DNA from: Streptococcus pneumoniae
GTDB lineage: Bacteria; Bacillota; Bacilli; Lactobacillales; Streptococcaceae
Reading direction: 5' to 3'
NCBI GenBank assembly: GCA_040719455.1
Contig: JBFDTN010000001.1
Coordinates: 248,001 to 312,000, forward strand
DNA: 64,000 bases
Both the position numbers and the translations under genes were made by a program. Below, one piece after another: positions 12,260 to 48,036 of this stretch; the stretch's first letter is position 1, and every line of letters starts with the position of its first letter. The notes under the pieces were generated by a model. That model saw nothing but the letters and a program-made list of their open reading frames with translations, was not told where the DNA came from and searched no databases.

Positions 12260-13354
12260 TTAAAAACGGTGTTGAGATTCTGTAAAAATAAATTTTTTCC
12301 ATTCTTTTAAATTGGGGTTTCCCATTCTTGTTAATAAGCGGCTGTTCAAATCAAAATCTGATGATTTGAAATGTTTATTGTTTCTATAAATAATTGAATT
12401 TATATGTTTTTTTAATGGTCTTGTACTTTCAAAATAATTGACAATTTGTAGAGCATCAAAAAGTGATAAAACGGAGGATGGTGCTCCTGTTTCAGATGGT
12501 GTTAAGTTAAATGATGTTACTAAGTTTGCATTTAATTTAATATATTTTGGAGATTGATAGCGATACACTAATGATCCGTGAGCACAGAAATTTCGAAGTG
12601 ATTTAATAATGTCAAACATATTTAAAAATTCATTTCGATAAAATAGCGGCATACCAAAATCCTTCATTACCTTTTCTAATATACTAGGTTCTAAGTAATG
12701 TAGTAAACGGATAACTTCACCTAATGTCATTGTTTCAATTGCCACCCAGAATGGGACAGCAACATGGCGGTGATAAGTATAATGTGGATTTTGACCTGTT
12801 CGAAAAGTTGTTGTCCCAGATTGGCTAGTATAGCGGGGGTCTGTATAAAATTGATAGTTAATATGGTCATTTTCATTGATTAATTTTGTCAGATAAAAAG
12901 GTTGAAATAAAATAAAATTATCGAAATCAGAGTAAATTTTTTTATTTTGGTAATTTACAAAAGGATAGTTGTTCGCATATTGACTATTTATTGGATTTAC
13001 ATATTTTGATTTTAATGTGTAGTTCATTGTATCACTTATTGTGAGACAATGAGTTTGAGTAAAGTGATAAGCTACTGAATTCTTTAATTTTGATTCAATA
13101 TTGTCGAGAATTTCGAGAATCGTAGCGGCTAATTTTTTATTAAATTTATAAATTGTAATAAAGTCTTCCAATGTTACTTTATTGAACTGTTTTGGATTCT
13201 TGCTCGAAAGCAAAAGATTTTCTATGCCATTGAACAAATTAAAGTAATTATATTTTATAAGGGCGTTGTCAAGCTCTCTGTCTTTAAATTGCAAGTTTCT
13301 ACTGTGTAATTTCAGTTTTAAAGATTCTCGACCTTCACTTTGTTTAATCGCCAT
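12260..13354 (-). CDS. Abi_2-family (AbiD/AbiF-like) HEPN abortive infection protein
   Basis: 364 residues. The N terminus ('LKLHSRNLQFKDRELDNALIK') and the C-terminal part ('FWVAIETMTLGEVIRLLHYL', then 'SLRNFCAHGSL') match Abi_2 proteins of lactococcal AbiD/AbiF type. RNFCAH near residue 250 is the R-x4-H motif of HEPN ribonucleases. Expected role is RNA cleavage after phage infection, costing the cell but stopping the phage. AGGAGT lies seven bases before the ATG. The gene is far more AT-rich than its neighbours and points against them, as expected of inserted cargo. No antitoxin partner is visible. Confidence 0.85.
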   Translation of the reverse strand: MAIKQSEGRESLKLKLHSRNLQFKDRELDNALIKYNYFNLFNGIENLLLSSKNPKQFNKVTLEDFITIYKFNKKLAATILEILDNIESKLKNSVAYHFTQTHCLTISDTMNYTLKSKYVNPINSQYANNYPFVNYQNKKIYSDFDNFILFQPFYLTKLINENDHINYQFYTDPRYTSQSGTTTFRTGQNPHYTYHRHVAVPFWVAIETMTLGEVIRLLHYLEPSILEKVMKDFGMPLFYRNEFLNMFDIIKSLRNFCAHGSLVYRYQSPKYIKLNANLVTSFNLTPSETGAPSSVLSLFDALQIVNYFESTRPLKKHINSIIYRNNKHFKSSDFDLNSRLLTRMGNPNLKEWKKFIFTESQHRF

Positions 13355-26770: not shown

Positions 26771-28648
26771 CTACTGTGATAAGCAATCTTTTAGTAATTC
26801 AAGTTCTTCAGTTGTTAAATCAGAAATTAATAGCTTAATCTTCTCGTTAGGTGAAACTTTTTCAGAAAGCATCTGATTGAGTTTGTTACGTATTATTGGT
26901 TCATTAATTGTTTGTATTTCAATTTTAGTTTGTTCTATTAATGTAGGGGAAATAGTTGGTTGATTAAGAATATTTACGATTTTATTTAACTTACATTGAG
27001 CAAAACTTCCATAGATATCAATTGTTTCCATGTTATCATATAGTATTCGTTGTATGTTTTTAGCAAATGTATTAACTTGTTTAGGAATTACTTTTCCGTG
27101 ATGTTCTTCTAGTGAAATTACATTATGATTTTTTATATCAGATAATATAAAGGGAGAATGGGTTGTAATAATAAACTGAAAAGTTATATTTTGAGTTGTA
27201 TTTGTTGCATTTTGATAGGAAGGATTTTCAACATCTAAAAAGTAAGTACAGCATAGAGTTAGGAGTTGAACCATCTTATTTGACCAAGAGGGATGAAACG
27301 ATTCATCTATTTCATCTATTAAGATTATATGGTTCCCACTTTTAGCATTTGAAATCAATTCAATTAATTGTCCTAAAAATTGAATTAAATTTTCTTCTCC
27401 TGTAGATGACAGTTCGTTTAACTTAAAAAATAAATTATCTTCAGGAAATACAACGATGCCATTAGGGTTTATTTGATTACAATGCAGAAGACTTCTATAT
27501 CCCATTAGAAAATCGTTAATCTCTTTTGTTTCTGATGAAAAATCAATAATAAATGAGTTGTTATTCATTTCTAAGTAGTCAGAAGCTTTCCATAATAATT
27601 GTATGGCTTCTATCGAAAAATTAATAAAATCAGTAATTTGATAGTTATGAAGCTTATCTATTTCGGAATCCTCATTTCGAAAATACTCTTTTAAAATTTG
27701 AGAACTTTTCTCAAGTTGCATAGATAAACCATCTATTTGAATATCCTGTAAGACCAAAGTTAGATATTCATAAATTTGATTTAGAAGTAGTTCTTCAATA
27801 TCTTCGTTCCAAAAATGGTATACTTCACTTAAAGAAAGCATTAAATTTATAAGAAAAGCAACTATTTGATTAATAAACTGAGATAGTAAATCATTTCCCC
27901 TGCTATCTAAGAAAAAATTGAGCAATTCCAAAATTCTTTCGTCATAGATACTTTTCTCAATTAATAAGGTTAGTAGTTCTTCATAAGACCAATATGAAAT
28001 TCTATATTTCATTATTTTATTTGAGGCGAAGAAATCATTTATTTTTAAAAATCTAAATGCTTGAATCGTATTATAGTTAGAAGGAGGTTGGCATAAGTGT
28101 CTAGTGATCAAATTCTTGCTAAATAATGTGTCAGATTTGTCATCATTCTCATTAAAACTATATTGAAGATATTTTTTGAAAATGTAGTTTATGCTTCCGT
28201 CAGGTATTCTGTCAACGATTTGGTAATTATTTCCTTGTTTTTTGAACAATATAGTTTCAGTATTTCCAATAAGACCATTAGAAGTTTCGATACTTTGATC
28301 ATTAAATAATATTCGTTTTACTGTATGCCTATTATTAAATTCAATAAAAATTGATTCATCTTGTTCATAGATAATAAAGTATTCATATTTACTTAAGAAT
28401 TCCTTACGCTCTGAGAATTTGAAGCCGATAAAGTTTAATATAGATGTTTTTCCAACACCATTTATGCCTACAATTGCTGAAATGTTTGTAATAGACTCTC
28501 CATAAAAACCAGCAATATAGGATGGATTTTTGCTAATTGTTACTGTTTCATTCCAATCGAAGTCTATGGTGTATTCATCTGAAAAATTAAAAATTTGGTT
28601 ACTTATTAAATCTTCGTAATCACGTAATATCAATCCTAGAAGTTTCAT
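26771..28648 (-). CDS. AAA/ABC-type ATPase (PtuA- or OLD-like), defence module
   Basis: 625 residues. Walker A GINGVGKTS near residue 63 follows the N-terminal strand 'IDFDWNETVTISKNP'. A long, variable helical insert follows. Walker B ILIDEIDESFHPSW is near 443 and a 'FIITTHSPFIL' segment near 490. This is the AAA_15/21-like architecture of OLD, PtuA and related phage-defence ATPases. No toprim nuclease domain is visible, so nuclease action presumably comes from the HNH partner. Only three bases separate the HNH stop from this ATG and the ribosome site AGAAAGG lies in the HNH gene. Strongly AT-rich. Function is inferred from architecture and pairing. Confidence 0.8.
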   Translation of the reverse strand: MKLLGLILRDYEDLISNQIFNFSDEYTIDFDWNETVTISKNPSYIAGFYGESITNISAIVGINGVGKTSILNFIGFKFSERKEFLSKYEYFIIYEQDESIFIEFNNRHTVKRILFNDQSIETSNGLIGNTETILFKKQGNNYQIVDRIPDGSINYIFKKYLQYSFNENDDKSDTLFSKNLITRHLCQPPSNYNTIQAFRFLKINDFFASNKIMKYRISYWSYEELLTLLIEKSIYDERILELLNFFLDSRGNDLLSQFINQIVAFLINLMLSLSEVYHFWNEDIEELLLNQIYEYLTLVLQDIQIDGLSMQLEKSSQILKEYFRNEDSEIDKLHNYQITDFINFSIEAIQLLWKASDYLEMNNNSFIIDFSSETKEINDFLMGYRSLLHCNQINPNGIVVFPEDNLFFKLNELSSTGEENLIQFLGQLIELISNAKSGNHIILIDEIDESFHPSWSNKMVQLLTLCCTYFLDVENPSYQNATNTTQNITFQFIITTHSPFILSDIKNHNVISLEEHHGKVIPKQVNTFAKNIQRILYDNMETIDIYGSFAQCKLNKIVNILNQPTISPTLIEQTKIEIQTINEPIIRNKLNQMLSEKVSPNEKIKLLISDLTTEELELLKDCLSQ

Positions 28649-28651
28649 TTT

Positions 28652-29584
28652 TTACCTTTCTAATTGATTTAATTCAACATATATGTCCGAAATTAATTTT
28701 GATAAAGGTCTTTTATGGTAATCTTTTTCAGCAGTATACACCCCAGTAAATAGTCTATCAATGTCGCTGTCAGATAACGGAATTATATTATTAATTTCGT
28801 TCAAATAATGTTCTGGAATAAAAATTTTCTTCAAAATTGTATCCAAAACAAAATCACTATGTATTTGATATAGATTATGTAAATCTAATAAATAAAAATC
28901 CTTTTTGAAATCTTTATGAATTTTTGAAGTAATATATATATGATCATGGTTGAATAAAAAATCACCATATAGGGGGTACCAACTAAATCTTAAACGTTGA
29001 TTTGGTGAAATTTTAACATTGTATGGGGACAATAAAAATGTATCAGTACCTTTATTCCTATTACAACTTGGACAAGAAGGGATTAAATTATAAAAAGAAG
29101 CTGCAAAAATAGGGAATTGTGATTTATTCCAAAAATGGTCTAATTCACAGGTATTTTTGTTGGTGGAAGAATTCATAAAATTCCGATTGCAGTAGGGACA
29201 TACTGATAAATTAGTTATAGATAGAAATTTTTTGCGCCGACTGTCTTTACTAATTGCATTATATACATTATTGATTAGATAGTCTTTAATTGATACCGAT
29301 CTATTTCCTTTTATTTTTCTATTACTTTTTATACTGAATTTGTAATTTAGATTGATAATTGCTGAGTCTGAAACAAGCTTTTCAAGTTCATCATAAGAAA
29401 GTAGCATAATATCTAAAAATGGTGTATCTGAAAAATCTCTACCAAATATTTTCTGAAATATTGATGATATGTTTCTCAAACACCACTTATCTAAATTTTT
29501 GCGATAAGCGACCTTCATATGTGTATAAACATCTTCACACAGATTCTTAACTTCTTCATCATTTATTTGATTAATTGTTATCAT
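28652..29584 (-). CDS. HNH endonuclease (PtuB-like), defence module
   Basis: 310 residues. The core has CPYCNR near residue 127, ELDHFW near 148 (metal-binding His) and 'IPSCPSCNRNKGTD' near 170. This is a zinc-bound HNH nuclease of the CxxC-DH-CxxC type seen in PtuB and similar effectors. It is first in a two-gene minus-strand operon with the ATPase. AAAGAGGT lies before the ATG. In classical Septu the ATPase gene comes first, so this is either a Septu relative with swapped order or another HNH/ATPase system. Expected role is to cut phage or host nucleic acid when the ATPase senses infection. Confidence 0.8.
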   Translation of the reverse strand: MITINQINDEEVKNLCEDVYTHMKVAYRKNLDKWCLRNISSIFQKIFGRDFSDTPFLDIMLLSYDELEKLVSDSAIINLNYKFSIKSNRKIKGNRSVSIKDYLINNVYNAISKDSRRKKFLSITNLSVCPYCNRNFMNSSTNKNTCELDHFWNKSQFPIFAASFYNLIPSCPSCNRNKGTDTFLLSPYNVKISPNQRLRFSWYPLYGDFLFNHDHIYITSKIHKDFKKDFYLLDLHNLYQIHSDFVLDTILKKIFIPEHYLNEINNIIPLSDSDIDRLFTGVYTAEKDYHKRPLSKLISDIYVELNQLER

Positions 29585-32956: not shown

Positions 32957-33433
32957 ATGATTGGAGATAATATTAGTTCACTGCGAAAAAAGCATGACTT
33001 AACACAGACAGAGTTTGCGAACATTGTTGGCATTTCACGCAATAGCCTCAGCCGTTATGAAAATGGCTCAAGCCCGATTACAACTGAATTAATTGATACT
33101 ATCTGTCAAAAATTCAATGTGTCTTATGTCGATTTGGTTGGAGAAGAAAAAATGCTTACCCCAGTAGAAGACTATCAGTTAACCTTAAAAATAGAGGTGT
33201 TGAAAGAGCGGGGAACTGCCATTTTATCTCGATTGTATCGCTACCAAGACGGACAAGGAATTGCCTTTGACGATGAGTTTAATCCATGGATTTTGATGAG
33301 TGATGACTTGTCTGATTTACTGAATACGAAGATTTACCTTGTAGATTCCTTTGAGGCATTAGAACGCTATAATGGCTATTTAGATGGGATTGAGAGGATG
33401 TTGGAGTTAGCCAGTCATCAGGTGGTGGCTTAA
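32957..33433 (+). CDS. pezA: PezA-type antitoxin and repressor
   Basis: 158 residues. An N-terminal XRE helix-turn-helix (residues about 5-55, 'LTQTEFANIVGISRNSLSRYE') binds the operator. The C-terminal helical part holds and neutralises the PezT kinase. The ATG at 32957 follows GGAGG; the longer frame from 32927 overlaps the promoter. The stop overlaps the pezT start. It matches the pneumococcal PezA size and layout. Loss of the operon frees toxin, so the pair stabilises the ICE. Confidence 0.92.
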   Translation: MIGDNISSLRKKHDLTQTEFANIVGISRNSLSRYENGSSPITTELIDTICQKFNVSYVDLVGEEKMLTPVEDYQLTLKIEVLKERGTAILSRLYRYQDGQGIAFDDEFNPWILMSDDLSDLLNTKIYLVDSFEALERYNGYLDGIERMLELASHQVVA

Positions 33434-34206
33434 TGACCTTAGAAAAATTTAGTCAGATAGATTTTGAACGGGCTTTGAAACGAACGATTCGGTCTTTAAC
33501 ACGTGGTAAAACGGCTTCTGAGCAGCCGCAAGCTATTTTACTAGGTGGGCAAAGCGGAGCAGGCAAGACAACGATTCACCGTATCAAACAAAAGGAATTT
33601 CAAGGGAACATCATTATTATTGATGGGGATAGTTATCGCTCCCAACACCCGAATTATTTAGCTTTGCAGGAAAAATATGGCAAGGACAGCGTTGAATACA
33701 CCAAACAATTCGCAGGAAAAATGGTGGAACATCTTGTGGATGAACTGAGCCAATTGGGCTATCATTTGTTAATTGAAGGAACGCTAAGAACCACGGAAGT
33801 CCCTCGAAAGACAGCTCAACTATTGAAATCAAAAGGGTATCAAGTCTCACTAGCCTTAATTGCGACGAAGCCTGAGTTATCCTATCTCAGTACCTTGATT
33901 CGTTATGAGGAACTCTATGCGATAGATCCAAGTCAAGCAAGAGCAACCCCGAAGGAACACCATGATTACATTGTGAATCATTTGGTTGAGAATGTACGAG
34001 AGTTAGAGAACGAACAACTCTTCAGGCAGATGCAGATTTACCAAAGAGATAGAAATTGTGTATTTGATTCCGAAACAGATGATGGTTCCGCAGCAGAAGT
34101 TCTACAAGACTGCCTCTTTGGAAATTGGAGCAAGGTGGAGGAGGAGATGATGAAGGATGGGGATTATCATTTAGAAAAGTTATTGGCTATGAATAGTGGT
34201 AGTTAA
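33433..34206 (+). CDS. pezT: PezT, zeta-family toxin (UDP-N-acetylglucosamine kinase)
   Basis: 257 residues. Walker A GGQSGAGKTT (about 38-47), IIIDGDSYR (catalytic Asp near 66), and 'LIEGTLRT' are the zeta-toxin signatures. The enzyme phosphorylates UDP-GlcNAc and related sugars and so poisons peptidoglycan synthesis. It starts at the last base of pezA. All key residues appear intact, so the toxin should be active. A C-terminal helical stretch of about 50 residues is usual for PezT. Confidence 0.93.
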   Translation: MTLEKFSQIDFERALKRTIRSLTRGKTASEQPQAILLGGQSGAGKTTIHRIKQKEFQGNIIIIDGDSYRSQHPNYLALQEKYGKDSVEYTKQFAGKMVEHLVDELSQLGYHLLIEGTLRTTEVPRKTAQLLKSKGYQVSLALIATKPELSYLSTLIRYEELYAIDPSQARATPKEHHDYIVNHLVENVRELENEQLFRQMQIYQRDRNCVFDSETDDGSAAEVLQDCLFGNWSKVEEEMMKDGDYHLEKLLAMNSGS

Positions 34207-34268
34207 CTGACTACAACCATACTATAGTAGGTAAAGTTTTCACTTTGCTTTTCAATCTTTAAGTAATG

Positions 34269-36323
34269 TTAGTAATCATCAAAAGAAGAATTATTTTTAT
34301 CAATGATTATTTTTTGAATTTGTAATTTTTCAAAATCAATTTGTTTTAGATTCCAGTTATAATAAGACTGCTCCATAAGCCGATTGAAAATTACGTAATA
34401 AATACTGTCCTGTCCTAGCTTATTTAATTCTTTATTTTTGGATTCTTGTAAGATATCTTTTGCAAATTTTCTTTTTATTTTTAGTTTTTGAAATTCTGGA
34501 TAATGAAGAAAGTCATTTAAAATATAAAAATATTTAGCATCTTCTAAAAGGCTGATTGTATGTGTTTGGTAATTTTGGATAAAATTCAATATTGACTTAA
34601 ATAGATACTTTAAGACGACCCTATATCTAGTTTCATCCCCGATTATATAATATCCAACAGCACAGAGAGTAAAGTAATCCTCTGGATTTTCATCTAGTAG
34701 TTGACACAAAAATTGTGTGCTCAACTTCTTGTCAAAAGACTTTAAATATACAATTAAATCAGATATATTATTGATTCTATTTGAGTTATTCTTCAATATT
34801 CTATAGATATTTTCGAATATTCTATTCTCAATATCTGATAGATAGTTTTCACTGTTTTTTATAAATTCTTCTTTATTTTTATTGATTATTGATCTTAAAT
34901 TGGATAACGAGGCTCTAAATTTCATTAGAGTTTTAATGTATGCTTTGGTTGTGTCAGAGTCAGGGTGTATTGAGTAAATATTGTTTATTTCCTCTAAAGC
35001 AATATATATTGTACGAAGGTACTTGAAAAAATAAGTGCTTTCACTGCCCATAAAAATTGGTTCATAAATTTTCAGAGAAATAAATTTTAAAAAATATAAA
35101 GTGATTCGTCTTTTAGAACTAGGGGTAGTGCTAACAATGTCCCTTATTGTTTCGTATAGTTGTATCCAAGCAGGCTCATTGATTAAAATCTGTGTTATCG
35201 AAAGTTTATAGGAGGGCTCAAGTTGCTGATATTTTTCTAAACTGTCATTTTTTAATAACTTTAATTGATTTATTTCACGATTATTAGAAAATATATTAAG
35301 AAGTTGTTTTAACTGTATGATAGGGGTATCAGATAGCGAGAAGGGTTGTTCTTTGATTTGGTGTTTTTCAAAATTTAGTTTTAAATTGAAATTTGAAAGC
35401 TCTCTGGCAATTTCCTGCTCAATAGTTTCTAATATTTCATACGTAGAGGAAAAAACATAGTAGTCATCAACAAAACGATAAATTTTATAGTCTTTATCAA
35501 ATTTAATATCTTTGCTATCTAGTTGTTTTTCAACATTATAATCACAATGAGTTAGGATGAGATCGGCAATTATTCTGTTTATTTCTGGTCCAATCATAAT
35601 ACCATTTGTTTCATTGTCATTACTTTTTTGTTGTATAATATCTGACTGAGTGGCAAAAGTATTCTTCAAATTTTGACTAGCATATCCTTTACCAGAATGC
35701 TTATCTCCAACTATTGCCCATGTAATTGAATGTGTATATATACTTCCAAAAAAGTTCTGGATATCAAGCTTAGAAAAAAAACGATATTTTAAACTGTCCC
35801 TATGAAAGCCAGGGGACTTCATTATACCTGATAATTTATGATTTTTATTGTAAGTAAAATATTTCTTGAAAAAACGATCTAGTTCTTCGTTTGTAATACT
35901 ACTATTTCCTGTAATGCCAAAATCTTGTTCGATTTTTAATCGTTCTTGATGTAGTGCTTTGCTTTCATTATGTGTTATTGTATTGTTTTTTTGGACTTTA
36001 CGAACATTGAATTTCGACTTTTGAAGATAGTTTATCAAAAGATACTCATATCTCATTATATAAAACATAAATTTCAGTTGTGAGCTTGGATGCATTAAAG
36101 AAATTGTTCTATATCCACCATTGTTTTTAGGTATTTCATAATTTAGAGGAATAGTGTACTTATCATTGAATTGAGCGTTAAATTTTTTAAGATCAGTCGG
36201 GACAAGATTTATTAATGCTTCTAAATTGTTTTTTATTGGTGCATTGGAGAAAAAAATGGGAAGTTCAAAAGGTAAAACTTCAGTAGTCAAAAACCACTCT
36301 TGTTTGAGAAATTTATTATTCAT
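34269..36323 (-). CDS. Defence reverse transcriptase, large subunit (Drt3b/AbiK-like)
   Basis: 684 residues from the ATG at 36323, chosen for AAGGA upstream; the GTG at 36353 coincides with a likely promoter. RT motifs in the N-terminal half: 'NNGGYRTISLMHPSSQLKF', KLDIQNFFGS (catalytic Asp near 186) and RFVDDYYVF (near 284, FVDD in place of YADD). The C-terminal half (about 350-684) is all-helical with no maturase or endonuclease domain. This matches the unknown-group/Abi RTs (UG8, AbiA, AbiK types) that fight phages. Divergent to a second RT, which suggests the two-RT DRT3 system. Very AT-rich. Confidence 0.78.
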   Translation of the reverse strand: MNNKFLKQEWFLTTEVLPFELPIFFSNAPIKNNLEALINLVPTDLKKFNAQFNDKYTIPLNYEIPKNNGGYRTISLMHPSSQLKFMFYIMRYEYLLINYLQKSKFNVRKVQKNNTITHNESKALHQERLKIEQDFGITGNSSITNEELDRFFKKYFTYNKNHKLSGIMKSPGFHRDSLKYRFFSKLDIQNFFGSIYTHSITWAIVGDKHSGKGYASQNLKNTFATQSDIIQQKSNDNETNGIMIGPEINRIIADLILTHCDYNVEKQLDSKDIKFDKDYKIYRFVDDYYVFSSTYEILETIEQEIARELSNFNLKLNFEKHQIKEQPFSLSDTPIIQLKQLLNIFSNNREINQLKLLKNDSLEKYQQLEPSYKLSITQILINEPAWIQLYETIRDIVSTTPSSKRRITLYFLKFISLKIYEPIFMGSESTYFFKYLRTIYIALEEINNIYSIHPDSDTTKAYIKTLMKFRASLSNLRSIINKNKEEFIKNSENYLSDIENRIFENIYRILKNNSNRINNISDLIVYLKSFDKKLSTQFLCQLLDENPEDYFTLCAVGYYIIGDETRYRVVLKYLFKSILNFIQNYQTHTISLLEDAKYFYILNDFLHYPEFQKLKIKRKFAKDILQESKNKELNKLGQDSIYYVIFNRLMEQSYYNWNLKQIDFEKLQIQKIIIDKNNSSFDDY

Positions 36324-36406
36324 GTTTGCTATATTTCCTTGAATTTTTATCACCTATATTGTATCATATAGAGGTAGGCAAGAGAAGTGGCTAAATATTT
36401 TATACA

Positions 36407-36551
36407 AGATTGCGCTCTCTCACACACAAAAAGATTATTTCAAGTTTTACTTAAAAGGTACATGTAATCACTAGTTATTCTGTGCTGATTATCTCGAGTG
36501 GGGCATAAATAGTTGCTCCACTCAGTCTGCCTACAATTTTAGGGGATTTGT
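36407..36551 (+). ncRNA. Candidate DRT3-type non-coding RNA
   Basis: The gap between the two divergent RT genes holds a possible -10 (TATACA, 36401), then TCTCTCACACAC with ACACAC at 36422-36427. Two hairpins follow: TAATCA/TGATTA (36465-36470 with 36486-36491) and a ten-pair stem GAGTGGGGCA/TGCTCCACTC (36496-36505 with 36514-36523). From general knowledge, DRT3 systems carry a short RNA with an ACACAC template copied by Drt3a. Location, strand and repeat fit that model. Boundaries are guesses. Confidence 0.5.
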
Positions 36552-37811
36552 ATGAAATTTAATTCAATGTTTGTAGGAATAATACAAGATGGCAGACAAG
36601 TTTATAAATTAAGAGAGAGTAAAGATAAGTCATTACGACCTACATTAAATGCTTTAAACACCGAGATAGTTAATAAATTTAATCTGAGCATCCCGAATAG
36701 GAATGCTATTATTAAATCATTGATTCAATTTTTAAGTCAAGGTAATATTTATTGCAATCAATCAGATTTAGAGGCAACGCCTCAGGATTTTTATGTAATA
36801 AAAGCAGATATTAAAAACTTTTTTCCATCAATCAACAAGCACAGACTATATAAAAAATTAGTTAGATCGTCTTTGTTAAAAGATTGTAGTATGGATATTA
36901 TTAAAACATTTATATTTAATAGCGATATCTCTGGTATTCCTTTAGGAATGCCGTTTTCTAATGCACTATCTGAAGTTTATTTAGAACAATTTGATGATGC
37001 TATAAGGCGAAAATTTTCTCCAATTTTTTATGTAAGATATGTGGATGATATATTAATAATAAAAAATTATCCTAGTGGCGATAATATTGATGAAACTAAG
37101 GAAAAGCAATTATTATTCGCTCAATTAAATAAAATTGGTTTATCAGGAAATAGTGATAAAACTAGTATCTATAAGTATAAAACCAATAGTATTGAATTTG
37201 AATATTTAGGATATAACTTTAGTATTTCAGTAAAAAAGGTAAAAAATAAAGTAATAAGAAAATTTCATATTGACATTTCTAAAAAAAAGTATGATAAAAA
37301 AATTCTGAATAGAATTACGCGATATTTTAAATATTATAATTCTTCCAGTTCTACTGATGAAGATTTCTGGATTCTCTATTATAGAATAAAAAATTTGATC
37401 TATGGAGTTACTTCTAGCGGTGAAAAGGGAATTGACCATAAGTTGAAATTTGGAATTGGTTTTAATTATAAGTTTATCAATTCTGACGATATATTAAAAA
37501 AACTTTTGAAGACATTTCACTATTTTAGGAAGAAATACTCTGGACGATTTACCTCGGAGCAAACTGCATACCTATTTAGTTTGATTACTGTTAATTCAAG
37601 TTCTAAAGGAAGAATCATCCTTAACCAATTTTCTGATACTGACGATATATTACTTTTGCTCAAAAAAAGAGTAACTTATACTAAGTATTCAATTTCAAAG
37701 TTAGAAGAAATTGCTCAGCGTATTGGATGTTCTTCAATTACTCGAAGCAACGATAGCTTATATAGATATAATTTACAAATACAGATTATGAAAAAATTAA
37801 GAATTCGTTAA
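36552..37811 (+). CDS. Defence reverse transcriptase, small subunit (Drt3a-like)
   Basis: 419 residues. RT motifs are VIKADIKNFFPSI (catalytic Asp near 87), GIPLGMPFSNALSE and RYVDDILII (catalytic Asp pair near 163), with a helical C-terminal part of about 200 residues. No maturase thumb or endonuclease domain is present, so it is not an intron protein. The size and YVDD motif fit retron/DRT-type enzymes, in particular the smaller RT of DRT3. AGGGGA precedes the ATG. It lies directly downstream of the proposed RNA. A perfect terminator follows. Very AT-rich, unlike the backbone. Confidence 0.78.
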   Translation: MKFNSMFVGIIQDGRQVYKLRESKDKSLRPTLNALNTEIVNKFNLSIPNRNAIIKSLIQFLSQGNIYCNQSDLEATPQDFYVIKADIKNFFPSINKHRLYKKLVRSSLLKDCSMDIIKTFIFNSDISGIPLGMPFSNALSEVYLEQFDDAIRRKFSPIFYVRYVDDILIIKNYPSGDNIDETKEKQLLFAQLNKIGLSGNSDKTSIYKYKTNSIEFEYLGYNFSISVKKVKNKVIRKFHIDISKKKYDKKILNRITRYFKYYNSSSSTDEDFWILYYRIKNLIYGVTSSGEKGIDHKLKFGIGFNYKFINSDDILKKLLKTFHYFRKKYSGRFTSEQTAYLFSLITVNSSSKGRIILNQFSDTDDILLLLKKRVTYTKYSISKLEEIAQRIGCSSITRSNDSLYRYNLQIQIMKKLRIR

Positions 37812-37818
37812 TCTAACT

Positions 37819-37841
37819 GAGAGCATTCTGCTCTCTTTTTT
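37819..37841 (+). terminator. Rho-independent terminator after the small RT
   Basis: GAGAGCA (37819-37825), loop TTC, TGCTCTC (37829-37835), then six T residues. Confidence 0.88.
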
Positions 37842-37860
37842 CTTACCTTATTTTTGATGA

Positions 37861-37892
37861 TGTGATAATTTTTCCAAACTAACCTTGTTATC
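37861..37892 (+). repeat. 32-base motif, copy 2 (before the mobilisation region)
   Basis: Second copy of the TGTGATAA...TCCAAA...CTTGTTAT motif found at 29739-29770. It lies between the RT cargo and the oriT region. Confidence 0.55.
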
Positions 37893-37924
37893 CTAATATC
37901 ATTCATAAGAAAATCAATTCTTGA

Positions 37925-38079
37925 TTTTTAACTGGGGGTTTGGGGGCGTAGTCACCAAGTTATTATATCGTTAGCTGTCAAAACTGGAAGGTTTTGGTCG
38001 GCTGGCGATTAGATTTTGGGTTATTGTGGACACAATAACTGAGCTCGCAAAGACCGAACAAGGAACGTGTGAGGTCTTT
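37925..38079 (+). other. Probable origin of transfer (oriT)
   Basis: Non-coding stretch upstream of the relaxase genes, with a G-rich start (37934-37947) and three inverted repeats: CAAAAC/GTTTTG (37979-37984, 37991-37996), GTTATTGTG/CACAATAAC (38020-38028, 38031-38039) and AAAGACC/GGTCTTT (38049-38055, 38073-38079). oriT regions of Tn5252-type elements lie here and are rich in such repeats. The nick site cannot be named from sequence alone. Confidence 0.65.
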
Positions 38080-38149
38080 AGGAGGTGTACTGACAATGTG
38101 AGGCAGCCTTATAGTGTCAGACAAGGATAATTTTGAAAGGATAGACAGG

Positions 38150-38512
38150 ATGAAACAGGATATTAAACTCGTTAGAAAGCAGTTTAGAATGACGAGACAA
38201 GAGGAAAGCGTGATAAAAAAGATGATGAAAGACCAGCAGATAGACAGTTTTTCAGAATTTCTTCGTCATAATCTATTTAAGAGTAATAGCAACGATAAAA
38301 CTATTGAGCTATGGTTCTCCCTATGGCAGTTACAAAAGATTGAACAAATCGGCCGAGATATTTTGAAGGTGACAACCTTGGCAGAACAAAATCAACAGCT
38401 TACATCAGAGGACCTACGGATTATTTTGACCTGTGTTCAGGAATTGATAGCAGAAGTTGAGAAATCTGTTCCTCTTAGCACTGATTTTCGAGATAAGTAC
38501 ATGGGAGTCTAG
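38150..38512 (+). CDS. Mobilisation accessory protein (RHH-like), 120 aa
   Basis: Helical, basic protein whose start ('FRMTRQEESVIKKMMKDQ') resembles a ribbon-helix-helix DNA-binding end, followed by 'SFSEFLRHNLF'. This is the pattern of relaxosome accessory proteins that bind oriT. The ATG at 38150 has AAAGG at good spacing; an in-frame GTG at 38114 lacks one. Two bases separate it from mobC. Confidence 0.75.
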   Translation: MKQDIKLVRKQFRMTRQEESVIKKMMKDQQIDSFSEFLRHNLFKSNSNDKTIELWFSLWQLQKIEQIGRDILKVTTLAEQNQQLTSEDLRIILTCVQELIAEVEKSVPLSTDFRDKYMGV

Positions 38513-38514
38513 AT

Positions 38515-38880
38515 ATGGAAAATCGTTATCGAACGAATCTTAAAAAAGTATTTTTGACAGATCAAGAACTTGCCATTTTGAACAACCATATCAGTCAAAG
38601 TCAGTGTAAAAATTTTTCTTCCTATGCCAGAAAGGTGTTACTTAATCCTGATATGACTTTCTTGACGATTGATACAAGTAACTACGAAGATTTAGTTTTT
38701 GAGTTGCGACGTATCGGGAATAATCTCAATCAAATCGCACGGACAGTTAACCAAACTCATATCTTAACACTAAGTGATAGAGAATTTTTGGTGCATGGCA
38801 TTGGCCAGCTCATCAAGGAAGTGGAGAAAGATTTCGACATCAAGTGCCACCAGTTGAGAGAATTTTATGGTAGTTACTAA
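38515..38880 (+). CDS. MobC-like mobilisation protein
   Basis: 121 residues. An N-terminal RHH-like segment ('FLTDQELAILNNHI') is followed by 'LVFELRRIGNNLNQIARTVN', the signature of the bacterial MobC family (PF05713). MobC proteins help the relaxase open the DNA at oriT. The stop overlaps the relaxase ATG by 14 bases. Confidence 0.88.
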   Translation: MENRYRTNLKKVFLTDQELAILNNHISQSQCKNFSSYARKVLLNPDMTFLTIDTSNYEDLVFELRRIGNNLNQIARTVNQTHILTLSDREFLVHGIGQLIKEVEKDFDIKCHQLREFYGSY

Positions 38881-40747
38881 GCACTATGCGACTCATGGGA
38901 GGAAGTATCGTAAGAGTCTGATTAAGTATATTTTAAATCCTGATAAGACTGAACAGCTGAAATTAGTATCTGACTTTGGTATGAGTAACTATTTAGATTT
39001 TCCAAGCTATGAAGAGTTAGTTGATATGTATAATGCTAATTTTGTTAATAACGACAGACTTTATGACTTCAGAAATGACCGTCAACAAGTCAAGCAAACT
39101 AAAATCCATGCGCATCATTTAATTCAATCTTTTTCTCCAGATGACAATCTCACTCCTGAAGAAATCAATCGTATTGGTTATGAGACAGTAAAAGAATTGA
39201 CTGGAGGAAATTTTCGCTTCATCGTAGCCACTCATACAGACAAGTCGCATACCCATAACCATATACTTATCAATTCTGTTGACCTAAATTCAGATAAGAA
39301 ACTTAAATGGGATTACGCTCAGGAGCGGAATCTACGGATGATTTCTGATCGTTTAGCCAAAGAAGCAGGAGCAAAGATATTGACACCTAATCGATATTCT
39401 CACGCAAAGTTTGTCACTTATCGAAAGACCAATAAAAAATTTGAACTCAAGCAACGACTTTATTTTCTCATGGAAAACAGTAAAAATTTTGATGACTTTT
39501 TGGAAAAGGCGGTAGCTTTAAATGTTCAGATAGATTTTTCACGTAAACATTCCCGCTTTTTGATGCCAGATATGGATATGAAACAAGTCATTCGTGGAGA
39601 CCAGCTGGATAAGCGAGGGCCGTTTACGGAAGATTATTTTAGAGAGCAGTTTGCCAAGCATGCCATAGAACAACGACTCGAGTTTTTATTACCAAGGGCA
39701 CATGATTTATTTCATCTTTTAGAAATAGCAGAACAGCTTCATTTGACTATTTCCCTAAAGCAGAAGAATGTTATTTTCACATTGAAGGATTCTAAGCAAA
39801 GTATCTCAATTGAAAACAAAAAAGTTAGTCAAAAAAATTTATATGATGTTCAATTTTTCAAAGATTACTTTGAAAATAGGAAACAAGCAGAATCTATTAT
39901 TTCAGAAAATCTTGTGGCTGATTTTGAGGCTTATCGTGAGAAGCAGGATACAGATAAGATAGTTAAGGATGATTTGTATCAGGCTTATCAAGATTTCAAA
40001 GAGAAGCGAGATCAAATTCAGGAATTTGAGGTGGTGCTTGCAGAGCATCAGATTGATAAGTTGGTCAATGAAGGCATATTTATCAGAATCAATTATGGAA
40101 TCAAAAGAGACGGCTTGGTATTTATTCCAAACCGTCATTTAGATATTAAGGAAGCAGAAGTGGGCAAGTCTTATCATGCCTTTATTCGCGAGACAGCTCA
40201 GTTTTTCATTTATAACAAGGAGAATTCTGGATTGAATCGCTACATGCGAGGGCGTGATTTAATCCGTCAGTTGACACATGATAGCAAGAATATCCCCAAA
40301 CGCAGACGATCGACGCTAGCAAGCCTCAAGGAAAAGATTGCAGAAATAAATCTCCTTATCGAATTGGACACTAACAATCAGTCTTATCTAGAAGTTAAAC
40401 ATGAACTAGTCAAAGAGATTGCTCAACTAGAGTTGGCTATCACGGACTTACAGGATAAGCTCACTCATCTTAATAAAGTGGCCGAAGTGCTGCTCAATCT
40501 TAACAACTCAGATTCAGAAAGCAGACGTTTAGCCAGATATGATTATGAAAAGATGAACCTGACTGCTGCCGTGCAACTGGAACAAGTTGAGGAAGAAATC
40601 AAGTCAGCTCAGCAAGTCTTGGATAAGTTGATAAATGATTATGAATATAAAGTTAACAGACTAGAGCAATTTAGCCAAACACTTTGCTGTTCTACACCTT
40701 CTTTGAACCGTATAGACTATCTAAATACAAATGGATTTGATTTCTAA
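38867..40747 (+). CDS. MOBP-type relaxase
   Basis: 626 residues. The N-terminal relaxase domain carries the His triad in 'HTDKSHTHNHILIN' (near 123-134) that binds the metal for nicking, after 'KIHAHHLIQSF'. The C-terminal part is helical with coiled coils (about 490-600). It cuts oriT, stays covalently attached to the 5' end and leads the strand into VirD4. Length and layout fit the Tn5252/ICESa2603 relaxases. It starts within mobC, with no new ribosome site needed. Its 3' end overlaps the convergent gene by 56 bases. Confidence 0.92.
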   Translation: MVVTKHYATHGRKYRKSLIKYILNPDKTEQLKLVSDFGMSNYLDFPSYEELVDMYNANFVNNDRLYDFRNDRQQVKQTKIHAHHLIQSFSPDDNLTPEEINRIGYETVKELTGGNFRFIVATHTDKSHTHNHILINSVDLNSDKKLKWDYAQERNLRMISDRLAKEAGAKILTPNRYSHAKFVTYRKTNKKFELKQRLYFLMENSKNFDDFLEKAVALNVQIDFSRKHSRFLMPDMDMKQVIRGDQLDKRGPFTEDYFREQFAKHAIEQRLEFLLPRAHDLFHLLEIAEQLHLTISLKQKNVIFTLKDSKQSISIENKKVSQKNLYDVQFFKDYFENRKQAESIISENLVADFEAYREKQDTDKIVKDDLYQAYQDFKEKRDQIQEFEVVLAEHQIDKLVNEGIFIRINYGIKRDGLVFIPNRHLDIKEAEVGKSYHAFIRETAQFFIYNKENSGLNRYMRGRDLIRQLTHDSKNIPKRRRSTLASLKEKIAEINLLIELDTNNQSYLEVKHELVKEIAQLELAITDLQDKLTHLNKVAEVLLNLNNSDSESRRLARYDYEKMNLTAAVQLEQVEEEIKSAQQVLDKLINDYEYKVNRLEQFSQTLCCSTPSLNRIDYLNTNGFDF

Positions 40748-46081: not shown

Positions 46082-48036
46082 GTACGACGGGCATGTCGTA
46101 CATCTGAGGTGCAAGTCCTCTGTGGGCACCCGCTACCGGTGAACCCAATAGCGACTCCCAAGCCTGACTATCGTGAGGTAGCGGGGAGAGGAAGGGATAG
46201 CGAAATCGTGGCTCTACGAACAGAAACGTGATATAAGGCGTTAACAGCGGATGAGGTGGCTAAGAACACTAAAGTCCCAAAAGGTAGTCGTAACCTGTTG
46301 GCGTAAATCACGAGAGTAAACGAGGAAAGATGTACGACTTATCCCGTGAGGTCTCATGAGCGTCGATTAGACGTAGTAACAACGAATCATGAGAAGTCAG
46401 CCAATAAAACAATTAGAGATTTGTGAAACGCGTTAGCGTGAACAGAGGTCATAGTAGTGATGAAGCTTCTGTAATGGAAGTGGAGCGAAGGACTGAATAT
46501 TCAAACAGTCTGGGGAGAGACTGTTTGAACTCTGTCGCAAGAAATAAAAATCGACAGACCGAAGTATGCCTACTTCACTTGTGTCTGAAAAATGAACGGT
46601 CTGATAGAACTGGACGCAGTCACGTATTGACTAGAAGAAAGTTCACCAATATAAGATGTCTCTCAGACACCAAAACAAGAAAGGAATACACACATGTCAG
46701 AATTACTAGATAATATCTTATCTCGTTCCAACATGCTTGAAGCCTACAATCAAGTCAAATCCAATAAGGGTTCAGCTGGTATTGATGGCGTTACCATTGA
46801 TGGCATGGATGACTATCTTCGCCAACATTGGCGACCAACCAAGGAACTGATAAAGCAAAGGAAGTATAAACCTCAGCCAGTTCTCCGAGTTGAAATACCC
46901 AAGCCAAACGGCGGAATCCGTCAGCTTGGTATCCCAACAGTCATGGACAGAATGATTCAACAGGCAATCGTTCAAGTTATCAGTCCACTCTGTGAGCCTC
47001 ACTTCGTAGAAACCAGTTATGGATTCAGACCGAATCGGTCATGCGAAAAAGCCATCATCAAGTTATTGGAGTACCTTAACGATGGCTATGAGTGGATAGT
47101 GGACATCGACCTTGAAAGATTCTTCGATACAGTTCCCCAAGACAGATTGATGTCACTTGTTCATAACATTATCCAGGATGGGGATACGGAATCCCTTATT
47201 CGGAAGTATCTTCATGCAGGTGTGGTTATCAATGGCCAAAGACATAAGACGCTAGTGGGGACTCCACAAGGAGGAAATCTGTCACCGATCTTGTCCAATA
47301 TTGTCCTCAACGAGCTGGATAAGGAGCTAGAAAATCGAGGTCTCCGCTTTGTTCGCTACGCAGACGATTGTGTCATCACTGTTGGGAGTGAAGCGGCGGC
47401 TAAGCGAGTAATGTACTCAGTTAGTCGCTTTATTGAGAAACGTCTTGGACTCAAGGTCAATATGACTAAGACTAAGGTGACACGACCAGGACAATTGAAG
47501 TATCTTGGATTTGGCTTCTGGAAGTCAACTGAAGGTTGGAAAAGTCGTCCCCATCAAGATAGCGTACAGAGCTTTAAGAGAAAGCTCAAGCAACTAACAA
47601 CACGCAAATGGAATATTGACTTGGACAGCCGTATTGAGAAATTAAACTATGTTATCCGAGGATGGATAAACTATTTCTCCTTGACGAACATGAGGAAGTC
47701 GATGGTAACCATTGATGAAAGACTGCGAACACGAATGAGGGTGATTATCTGGAAACAATGGAAGAGGAAATCGAGGCGACTATGGGGACTGCTTAAACTA
47801 GGGGTCCCAAAGTGGATAGCAGATAGAGTATCTGGATGGGGTAACCACTATCAACTTGTGGCACAAAAGTCAGTCCTAAAACGAGCTATATCAAAACCAG
47901 TCCTCATGAAACGAGGACTGGTCAGTTGTTTGGATTATTACCTAGAACGACATGCGTTAAAAGTTAATTGAACCGCCGTATGCCGAACGGCACGTACGGT
48001 GGTGTGAGAGGGGCTACCAGTTAGCCCCTACTCGAT
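46082..48036 (+). mobile_element. Group II intron (class C type)
   Basis: About 1.95 kb. The 5' end is near GTACGAC at 46082 (consensus GUGCGAC). Domain V is at about 47969-48012 (CCGTATGCCGAACGG with CGTACGGTGG) and domain VI at about 48010-48030 (GGGGCTA/TAGCCCC), with the 3' end near CTACTCGAT (48036). The 600 bases before the ORF are ribozyme domains I-IV, not a gene. It is a self-splicing RNA that reinserts by reverse transcription with its own protein. Confidence 0.85.
46694..47971 (+). CDS. ltrA: Group II intron reverse transcriptase/maturase (LtrA-like)
   Basis: 425 residues. RT motifs: 'GSAGIDGVTIDGMDDYL', 'VDIDLERFFDTV', 'GTPQGGNLSPILSN' and RYADDCVI (catalytic Asp pair near 230). 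Then the maturase X/GIIM region ('RGWINYFSL', 'WKQWKRKSRRLW'). There is no HNH endonuclease domain, as expected for class C. It binds its intron RNA, helps splicing and copies it into DNA. GAAAGGAA precedes the ATG. Full length with no frameshift. Confidence 0.95.
   Translation: MSELLDNILSRSNMLEAYNQVKSNKGSAGIDGVTIDGMDDYLRQHWRPTKELIKQRKYKPQPVLRVEIPKPNGGIRQLGIPTVMDRMIQQAIVQVISPLCEPHFVETSYGFRPNRSCEKAIIKLLEYLNDGYEWIVDIDLERFFDTVPQDRLMSLVHNIIQDGDTESLIRKYLHAGVVINGQRHKTLVGTPQGGNLSPILSNIVLNELDKELENRGLRFVRYADDCVITVGSEAAAKRVMYSVSRFIEKRLGLKVNMTKTKVTRPGQLKYLGFGFWKSTEGWKSRPHQDSVQSFKRKLKQLTTRKWNIDLDSRIEKLNYVIRGWINYFSLTNMRKSMVTIDERLRTRMRVIIWKQWKRKSRRLWGLLKLGVPKWIADRVSGWGNHYQLVAQKSVLKRAISKPVLMKRGLVSCLDYYLERHALKVN

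What the first reader, a model, noticed from the sequence alone, without database searches (positions are those of the whole stretch)
34269..37811. Divergent pair of defence reverse transcriptases around an ACACAC-bearing structured gap (DRT3-like)
Two unrelated RTs without maturase domains face away from each other across a 198-base gap. The gap has TCTCTCACACAC at 36416-36427, a ten-pair hairpin and a second stem. In DRT3, two RTs act with a short RNA whose ACACAC template is copied by Drt3a into GT repeats. Here the small RT (YVDD, 419 aa) lies just downstream of the motif on the same strand and the large one (FVDD, 684 aa) is opposite. A divergent DRT3 on a streptococcal ICE would be a notable variant.
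Basis: partly seen in the sequence, partly recalled or inferred. Interest (0 to 1): 0.85.

Follow-up and report, generated by a model that had tools for sequence, protein, structure and literature searches.

The report
Back-to-back DRT3 with central template RNA
A mobile element in a Streptococcus genome carries two reverse transcriptase genes back to back around a predicted template RNA; by descent and key residues they belong with DRT3, a known bacterial phage defence that makes repetitive GT/AC DNA, but in a mirrored lineage where the RNA likely sits between the genes instead of behind them, which makes this form directly testable.

Summary
36552-37811(+) is a Drt3a-type and 34269-36323/36353(-) a Drt3b-type reverse transcriptase (PADLOC 5e-72 and 1.5e-125; both below NCBIfam's naming cut-offs). 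Trees of either protein split divergent (19) from tandem (74) systems with one change each. In 68 of 77 tandem loci ACACAC follows Drt3b. In divergent loci it does so in 0 of 18: it lies in the gap on the Drt3a strand (13 of 19; all 19 have at least ACACA there) and in none on the other strand. The gap fits an RNA of about 161 nt (36374-36534): a closing stem, a short stem directly 5' of ACACAC, further hairpins, and compensatory changes among four streptococci, just before the Drt3a ribosome-binding-like site. The residues that gate and prime E. coli Drt3b (E22, R241, Y666) are kept. The cassette moves alone: the same 3.6 kb sits on chromosomes of three other species, and the same slot of sibling elements holds Gabija, Lamassu, Ppl or Dodola genes. 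Best reading: a mirrored Bacillota DRT3 lineage whose template RNA lies 5' of Drt3a, as in DRT2/DRT9, likely making poly(GT)/poly(CA). Transcript, DNA product and defence are untested.

The parts
36552..37811 (+). Drt3a-type (UG3, Class 2) reverse transcriptase, 419 aa, YVDD; lacks about 58 N-terminal residues of E. coli Drt3a and has a longer C-terminus
34269..36353 (-). Drt3b-type (UG8, Class 1) reverse transcriptase; 684 aa from the ATG ending at 36323 or 694 aa from the GTG at 36353; FVDD; E20, R72, R250 and C-terminal Y684 (684-aa numbering) match Eco E22, R71, R241, Y666
36374..36534 (+). Predicted DRT3 template RNA, from the 5' strand to the 3' strand of the closing stem
36374..36380 (+). 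Closing stem P1, 5' strand GUAGGCA (pairs with 36528-36534); six of seven pairs are invariant in the four streptococci, so they support it by conservation, not by covariation
36528..36534 (+). Closing stem P1, 3' strand UGCCUAC
36381..36385 (+). Template-boundary stem, 5' strand AGAGA (pairs with 36416-36420)
36416..36420 (+). Template-boundary stem, 3' strand UCUCU, ending one base before the template
36422..36427 (+). Template ACACAC, predicted unpaired (mean probability 0.99)
36442..36452 (+). Small hairpin AAGU-UUU-ACUU; last pair U-A here and in L007, C-G in L006 and L005 (hand pairing; MAFFT misaligns L005 by one column)
36496..36523 (+). Ten-pair hairpin GAGUGGGGCA / UGCUCCACUC
36339..36367 (+). 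Promoter-like TTGAAT-17-TATCAT, which would start transcription near 36374; conserved in four streptococci, but such matches are as frequent in shuffles
36541..36545 (+). Ribosome-binding-like AGGGG, six bases after the closing stem, before the Drt3a ATG
   Evidence: sequence
37819..37841 (+). Terminator-like hairpin GAGAGC/GCTCTC plus T run after Drt3a, kept in three relatives; near the end of the shared cassette
   Evidence: sequence

Best explanation
The locus is a divergently arranged DRT3: Drt3a (+) and Drt3b (-) face away from each other across a gap that is predicted to encode their template RNA (about 36374-36534, + strand), whose ACACAC (36422-36427) Drt3a would copy repeatedly into poly(dTdG) while Drt3b would make poly(dCdA) without a nucleic acid template, likely primed on its C-terminal tyrosine. 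The short stem directly 5' of ACACAC would stop Drt3a after each copy so that it slips back and repeats, as SL5 is proposed to do in DRT10. The two strands would anneal to GT/AC double-stranded DNA; in E. coli DRT3 this is kept low by RecBCD until a phage inhibits it, and here RexAB would be the matching nuclease. Shown here: gene identity, layout, shared descent, kept residues, motif position and strand, fold support. Inferred: transcript, processing from the Drt3a leader, DNA products, trigger and defence.
For: PADLOC Drt3a 5.2e-72 (next family UG17, 6.8e-30) and Drt3b 1.5e-125 (next family Drt6, 7.2e-42). Best PDB sequence matches: for Drt3b 26cz (deposited as a SUMO-fused RNA-directed DNA polymerase; its residues fit the published Drt3b numbering) and 9z6y (Drt3b), for Drt3a 9z6y (Drt3a). 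Divergent (19) and tandem (74) loci separate with one change in the Drt3b tree (SH-aLRT 97 for divergent, 94 for tandem) and the Drt3a tree (99). E22, R71, D182, F187, R241, D278 and D279 of E. coli Drt3b are identical in 19 of 19 divergent proteins and Y666 in 15 of 19; the window has all of them. ACACAC follows Drt3b in 68 of 77 tandem loci, but in 0 of 18 divergent ones after Drt3b and 0 of 15 after Drt3a; it is in the gap on the Drt3a strand in 15 of 21 (13 of 19 distinct) against 1.07 expected, and on the other strand in 0. The template is unpaired and directly preceded by a stem strand in 15 of 19 divergent gaps (1.76 expected) and 27 of 34 tandem loci (3.65 expected) (thresholds of 0.6 chosen). 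26 proposed pairs hold in 91.3% of cells against 36.5-50.5% when slid. DNA identity to three other species covers 34229-37847 in all three and at most 34216-37854, which leaves no other shared stretch for an RNA in cis. RexB is in the genome.
Against: No transcript, DNA product or phage test. Both proteins fall below the NCBIfam equivalog cut-offs (168 of 200 and 290 of 350 bits). Covariance models link neither this RNA to the non-streptococcal divergent RNAs searched nor to the E. coli-type RNA. Only four streptococcal sequences carry the structure test, and two of its measures are not beyond shuffles (pairs changed on both sides, 72 of 500; further pair types, 315 of 500). Some stretches of other loci fold no better than shuffles (L014 z +0.4, L008 -1.7, L187 -1.8, L198 -1.8 and -1.2), though those were cut at guessed ends. 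Four of 19 gaps fail the template test: L007, L005, L195, L196. Six of 19 distinct gaps have ACACA but no ACACAC. AlphaFold places residues 679-684, with the priming tyrosine, at pLDDT under 50. The promoter match is no better than shuffles by itself.
Confidence: 0.8

Rival explanations
1. The gap RNA is only a structured 5' leader that controls Drt3a translation; the repeat template is elsewhere or absent.
For: The closing stem ends six bases before the ribosome-binding-like site, and leaders can be structured.
Against: ACACAC is on the Drt3a strand in 15 of 21 gaps and on the other in 0, mostly unpaired behind a stem as in tandem DRT3 loci; no ACACAC within 250 nt of either stop codon in the divergent loci with enough sequence; the shared cassette holds nothing else. 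An RNA encoded far away was not searched for.
Confidence: 0.08
2. The pair works like DRT3 but makes a different repeat, because the template flank (CUCUCUC) is copied too or because shortened templates such as ACACA give another register.
For: Here CUCUCUC, and in L006 UUCUCUC, precedes ACACAC, so read-through would give GTGTGTGAGAGAG; six deeper loci have only ACACA; E. coli Drt3a does read into its neighbouring stem-loop (PMC13174585).
Against: In L007 and L005 the flank is UUCUCAU instead, while ACACAC and the stem are kept; Drt3b residues that fix CA alternation are unchanged, and a complementary partner strand would need GT.
Confidence: 0.1
3. The two RTs act separately: Drt3b as an AbiK/DRT4-like untemplated polymerase, Drt3a as a lone Class 2 RT.
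For: Foldseek puts the Drt3b model next to DRT4, UG15, DRT6 and AbiK.
Against: Both RTs lie side by side in 96 of 103 loci; of the other 7, three are other RTs used as outgroup and four have Drt3b alone, three of them at a contig end; both trees split the same sets; the dA and dC gate residues are kept. The Foldseek library ends on 2026-04-08 and none of the 50 rows shown is a DRT3 entry.
Confidence: 0.04
4. The locus is decaying or silent cargo of the ICE.
For: A Streptococcus relative holds only a Drt3b remnant with four stops (L185); full-length Drt3b is in 4 of 284 Streptococcus genomes, this one included.
Against: Here both frames, the catalytic residues and the RNA stems are intact, and 75-85% DNA identity runs over the cassette in three other species.
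Confidence: 0.05

Closest known systems
E. coli DRT3 (Drt3a + Drt3b + ncRNA; PMC13174585)
   Same: Both RT families, catalytic and gating residues, C-terminal tyrosine, ACACAC predicted unpaired next to a stem
   Different: Divergent instead of tandem; RNA before Drt3a instead of after Drt3b; RNA not found by a model of E. coli-type RNAs; FVDD in Drt3b; Drt3a about 58 residues shorter at the N-terminus
DRT9 and DRT2
   Different: One RT only; poly-dA or gene-like products; no Drt3b partner (recalled, and review passages)
DRT10 (UG17)
   Same: Tandem-repeat template in a loop behind a stem proposed as template boundary (PMC12632851 passages); UG17 is the next PADLOC family for our Drt3a
   Different: Has a SLATT partner, absent next to the genes here; single RT; other template sequence
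AbiK / DRT4 / DRT6
   Same: Class 1 fold of Drt3b
   Different: Single-gene systems; the Drt3b profile score is far higher

Membership tests
DRT3 | Drt3a (UG3) RT | tested here: met
   PADLOC Drt3a 5.2e-72, best family; Drt3a tree
DRT3 | Drt3b (UG8) RT next to it | tested here: met
   PADLOC Drt3b 1.5e-125, best family; Drt3b tree
DRT3 | NCBIfam equivalog cut-offs (a naming threshold, not a biological criterion) | tested here: not met
   168.2 of 200 and 289.7 of 350 bits; close relatives that carry an NCBI name are mostly called RNA-directed DNA polymerase
DRT3 | Drt3b residues for protein templating and priming (Eco E22, R241, Y666) | tested here: met
   window E20, R250, Y684
DRT3 | RNA with ACACAC in an unpaired template loop | tested here: met
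   sequence and predicted fold only; expression not testable
DRT3 | Tandem a-b operon with the ncRNA after Drt3b (layout of the E. coli system) | tested here: not met
   the reason for calling it a variant lineage, not a plain member
DRT3 | RNA homologous to E. coli-type DRT3 RNA | tested here: not met
   own model R2 of five E. coli-type sequences does not hit the gap; the published model is not available here
[quoted passage not shown] phage defence | not testable with these tools
   needs cDNA sequencing and plaque assays
DRT10 | SLATT partner gene | tested here: not met
   flanking genes are a zeta toxin and mobilisation genes; no SLATT match among the nine proteins scanned with Pfam
AbiK/DRT4 | lone Class 1 RT | tested here: not met
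   a Drt3a lies beside it here and in 96 of 103 loci

The most novel reading that the evidence does not exclude
DRT3 exists in two anciently separated layouts. In the Bacillota form the template RNA is the 5' leader of its Class 2 reverse transcriptase, as in DRT2 and DRT9, and the protein-templated Class 1 enzyme is plugged in on the other side of a shared promoter region; the RNA sequence was replaced beyond recognition while only the AC-repeat template and its telomerase-like boundary stem stayed, shrunk to ACACA in deeper lineages.
Probability: 0.65. Interest if true: 0.75.

Novelty: new variant of a known kind. Interest (0 to 1): 0.64.

Why it matters
DRT3 makes double-stranded DNA from one RNA-templated and one protein-templated strand, which its authors call unique (PMC13174585, abstract), and its mechanism is known from E. 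coli. A second lineage with the same active sites but a different layout, a different RNA and a shorter Drt3a separates what the chemistry needs (AC template, a boundary stem, E22/R241/Y666) from what is E. coli habit. It also moves the question of how GT/AC DNA is held in check to cells with RexAB instead of RecBCD, and gives a search rule (ACACA behind a stem, between divergent RTs) for systems whose close relatives NCBI names only RNA-directed DNA polymerase.

Tried and rejected
Led nowhere: Rfam over 33000-39000 gave one weak hit below its gathering score. Plasmid and phage searches with Drt3a found no record above 60% identity or with 80% coverage, and the gap had no match in plasmids. 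An exact template pattern had no match in viral contigs. The Drt3a alignment scan of viral contigs gave distant RTs only. The streptococcal RNA model found only its own four sources with a low E-value, and the E. coli-type model only E. coli-type loci. Foldseek showed no DRT3 entry. A phylum-wide sample of 398 genomes added no locus.

Rejected: RNA after Drt3b or after Drt3a (only 62 bases lie between the Drt3b and zeta-toxin stop codons); coincidence of ACACAC; lone AbiK/DRT4-type or DRT10-type system. An exception to the layout rule is kept in view: L192, from an incomplete genome of the same order, is tandem; its contig ends with Drt3b, so its RNA could not be looked for, and it is not in the trees.

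Rows left out by hand: L012 and L188-L191 (near-duplicates) from the trees, L012 and L188; L003/L004 are the same loci as L006/L007; 3 of 77 tandem loci were dropped from each tree by length filters; the 7 single-RT loci are in no count except the 3 used as outgroup (L186, L193, L194). and the tandem half used a hand-picked part of the 77 tandem loci (33 and 35 of 77, one of them without ACACAC and so not scored); one search repeats the ACACAC count on all 77. In one search only the first candidate site of each gap was scored, and for L195 the first ACACA instead of its ACACAC. Gaps run between the points where protein homology starts, not between start codons. One search kept 80 of 366 matching places. 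Of the seven sibling elements with both zeta toxin and mob genes in the fetched stretch, cargo of five was scanned.
Full report
Observation. The two reverse transcriptases, the gap and the motif are as described. The only slip is that a 684-aa Drt3b (ATG) goes with a 228-base gap; the 198-base gap goes with the 694-aa GTG start.

Identity. The small RT is best matched by PADLOC Drt3a (5.2e-72; next family UG17, 6.8e-30) and the large one by Drt3b (1.5e-125; next family Drt6, 7.2e-42). NCBIfam agrees on the family but both proteins score below its naming cut-offs (168.2 of 200; 289.7 of 350); close relatives that carry an NCBI name are mostly called RNA-directed DNA polymerase. The closest solved structures by sequence are, for Drt3b, 26cz (1.5e-42, deposited as a SUMO-fused RNA-directed DNA polymerase) and 9z6y (Drt3b, 4.7e-34), and for Drt3a 9z6y (Drt3a, 8e-15). 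AlphaFold models are good for Drt3b (pLDDT 90.9) and fair for Drt3a (84.1). Foldseek places Drt3b with Class 1 enzymes (DRT4, UG15, DRT6, AbiK) and Drt3a with retron and DRT9 RTs.

A lineage, not a one-off. Species genomes, viral contigs, two E. coli records and the window gave 103 loci with an RT hit once near-duplicates were left out: 77 tandem, 19 divergent, 7 with one RT only. None of the 62 tandem loci with a named phylum is Bacillota, but one search kept only 80 of 366 places, so this is a sample. One tandem locus from an incomplete genome of the window's order (L192) is the exception I saw. Trees of Drt3b (96 rows) and Drt3a (93 rows) each need one change to separate the 19 divergent from the 74 tandem rows, with SH-aLRT 97 and 99 for the divergent group. 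The Drt3b root rests on a long outgroup branch, and the Drt3a tree is midpoint-rooted, so which layout came first is open. Within Streptococcus it is rare: full-length Drt3b in 4 of 284 genomes, plus one remnant with four stops.

Where the RNA is. In E. coli DRT3 the RNA lies after Drt3b and carries ACACAC in a loop (PMC13174585; I read the abstract, Results parts 1-2 of 3, Discussion, the covariance and residue-conservation methods, and figure legends part 1). The tandem loci here agree: ACACAC within 250 nt after Drt3b in 68 of 77 (4.74 expected). The divergent loci swap this: 0 of 18 after Drt3b and 0 of 15 after Drt3a, but 15 of 21 (13 of 19 distinct) in the gap on the Drt3a strand and 0 of 21 on the other strand (1.07 expected). 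The shorter ACACA is in all 21 gaps on the Drt3a strand and 2 of 21 on the other (6.09 expected). Space supports this too: DNA identity to three other species covers 34229-37847 in all three and at most 34216-37854, and just 62 bases separate the Drt3b and zeta-toxin stop codons. An RNA encoded far away was not searched for.

What the RNA looks like. In four streptococci the segment from GUAGGC to GCCUAC is alignable, and 23 bases from ACACAC onward are invariant. Proposed stems: a closing stem 36374-36380/36528-36534 (mostly invariant, hence without covariation); a boundary stem 36381-36385/36416-36420 ending one base before the template, whose outermost pair is A-U in two species and U-A in two; a small hairpin; and the ten-pair hairpin. 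On the alignment 91.3% of cells pair, against 36.5-50.5% with partners slid; 5 pairs change on both sides, against 0-3 when slid; the covariation score is reached in 1 of 500 shuffles, but the number of such pairs in 72 of 500 and the number of pair types in 315 of 500. Fold z-scores are -3.2 (window), -6.6, -4.3 and -2.5, and -6.9 for an Enterococcus gap; stretches cut at guessed ends in other loci gave +0.4 to -4.5. Enterococcus-type gaps have the same plan with other letters: CUAG..CUCCUU closing on AAGGAG..CUAG with compensated pairs and one or two mismatches, and UUCC/GGAA just before UACACAC. Across 19 divergent gaps the template is unpaired and directly preceded by the 3' strand of a stem in 15 (1.76 expected), and in 27 of 34 tandem loci (3.65 expected) (the 0.6 thresholds were set). 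DRT10's SL5, immediately upstream of its template loop, is proposed to set the template boundary (PMC12632851 passages). A promoter-like pair at 36339-36367, conserved in the four species but unremarkable by count, would start the RNA at the closing stem. The Drt3a ribosome-binding-like site follows six bases after it, so RNA and mRNA probably share a transcript; how the RNA is released is unknown. Directly upstream of the RT is also where the DRT9 and DRT2 RNAs lie (PMC12483538 passage).

Chemistry. Aligned to the 667-aa E. coli Drt3b of L199, whose E22, R71, D182, F187, R241, YVDD and Y666 match the published numbering, the window has E, R, D, F, R, FVDD and Y. In the 19 divergent proteins E22, R71, D182, F187, R241, D278 and D279 are in 19 of 19; Y666 aligns with Y in 15, F in 1 and a gap in 3; position 276 is F in 13 and Y in 6 (Y in all 74 tandem). 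So poly(dCdA) by the same protein template is the expected product, and ACACAC gives the complementary poly(dTdG). The Drt3a here lacks about 58 N-terminal residues of the E. coli protein. In E. coli RecBCD degrades the product until a phage inhibits it (PMC13174585); this genome encodes RexB well above cut-off (1495 of 718 bits; RexA was not searched), so RexAB is the natural counterpart. That step is inference.

Setting. The cassette sits between a zeta toxin/epsilon antitoxin pair and MobC/relaxase genes of an ICE. Seven of 16 fetched sibling elements show both zeta toxin and mob genes; in the five whose cargo was scanned the slot holds Lamassu-type (L232), Gabija-type (L240), Ppl-type (L241, L243) or Dodola (L246) genes, so it is a defence slot. 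In L247 (the Streptococcus sanguinis locus L006), L248 and L249 (the S. infantis locus L007) the same cassette stands without the zeta toxin and mob genes.

Verdict and print status. It works like DRT3 and descends with it, but differs in layout, RNA position and RNA sequence: a new variant of a known kind. Searches for DRT3 with Streptococcus, divergent, UG3/UG8 and DRT/ICE terms and passages of DRT3 papers showed no description of a divergent DRT3. The UG/Abi survey of Mestre et al. 2022 is not held and the Science paper of Deng et al. was seen only through others, so prior mention there cannot be excluded. UG3/UG8 adjacency itself is known (PMC8934634 passages), and one Irish S. suis survey lists DRT class II among subtypes found in under 5% of genomes (PMC12813430 passage).

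Noticed in passing
26771-29584 (-): AAA ATPase and HNH pair matching PADLOC candidate system PDC-M62A/B (5.9e-43, 1.7e-39), with weaker Septu (PtuA/PtuB) matches; a second likely defence module on the same element.
   Followed up: partly
12260-13354 (-): Gene with Pfam Abi_2 (7e-26), a third possible phage-defence gene of the element.
   Followed up: no
L232, L240, L241, L243, L246 (slot between zeta toxin and mob genes): Sibling ICEs carry Lamassu, Gabija, Ppl or Dodola genes at the place of DRT3: a defence-exchange slot.
   Followed up: yes
L247, L248: DRT3 cassette between the same two chromosomal genes (recognised by eye as pnp and pepF) in two species, so a chromosomal site also attracts it.
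   Followed up: partly
L016, L019, L024, L027, L044, L196 (and perhaps L195): Deeper divergent lineages have ACACA-type sites (AAUACACA, AAACACAAC, UACACAAU) where streptococci have ACACAC; their repeat product may differ.
   Followed up: partly
L185: Streptococcus genome with only a Drt3b remnant interrupted by four stops.
   Followed up: no
46694-47971 (+): A third RT in the window, looks like a group II intron RT by eye; no family search done.
   Followed up: no
L192: Tandem DRT3 in an incomplete genome of the window's order, the only exception to the layout rule seen; transfer or contamination not tested.
   Followed up: partly
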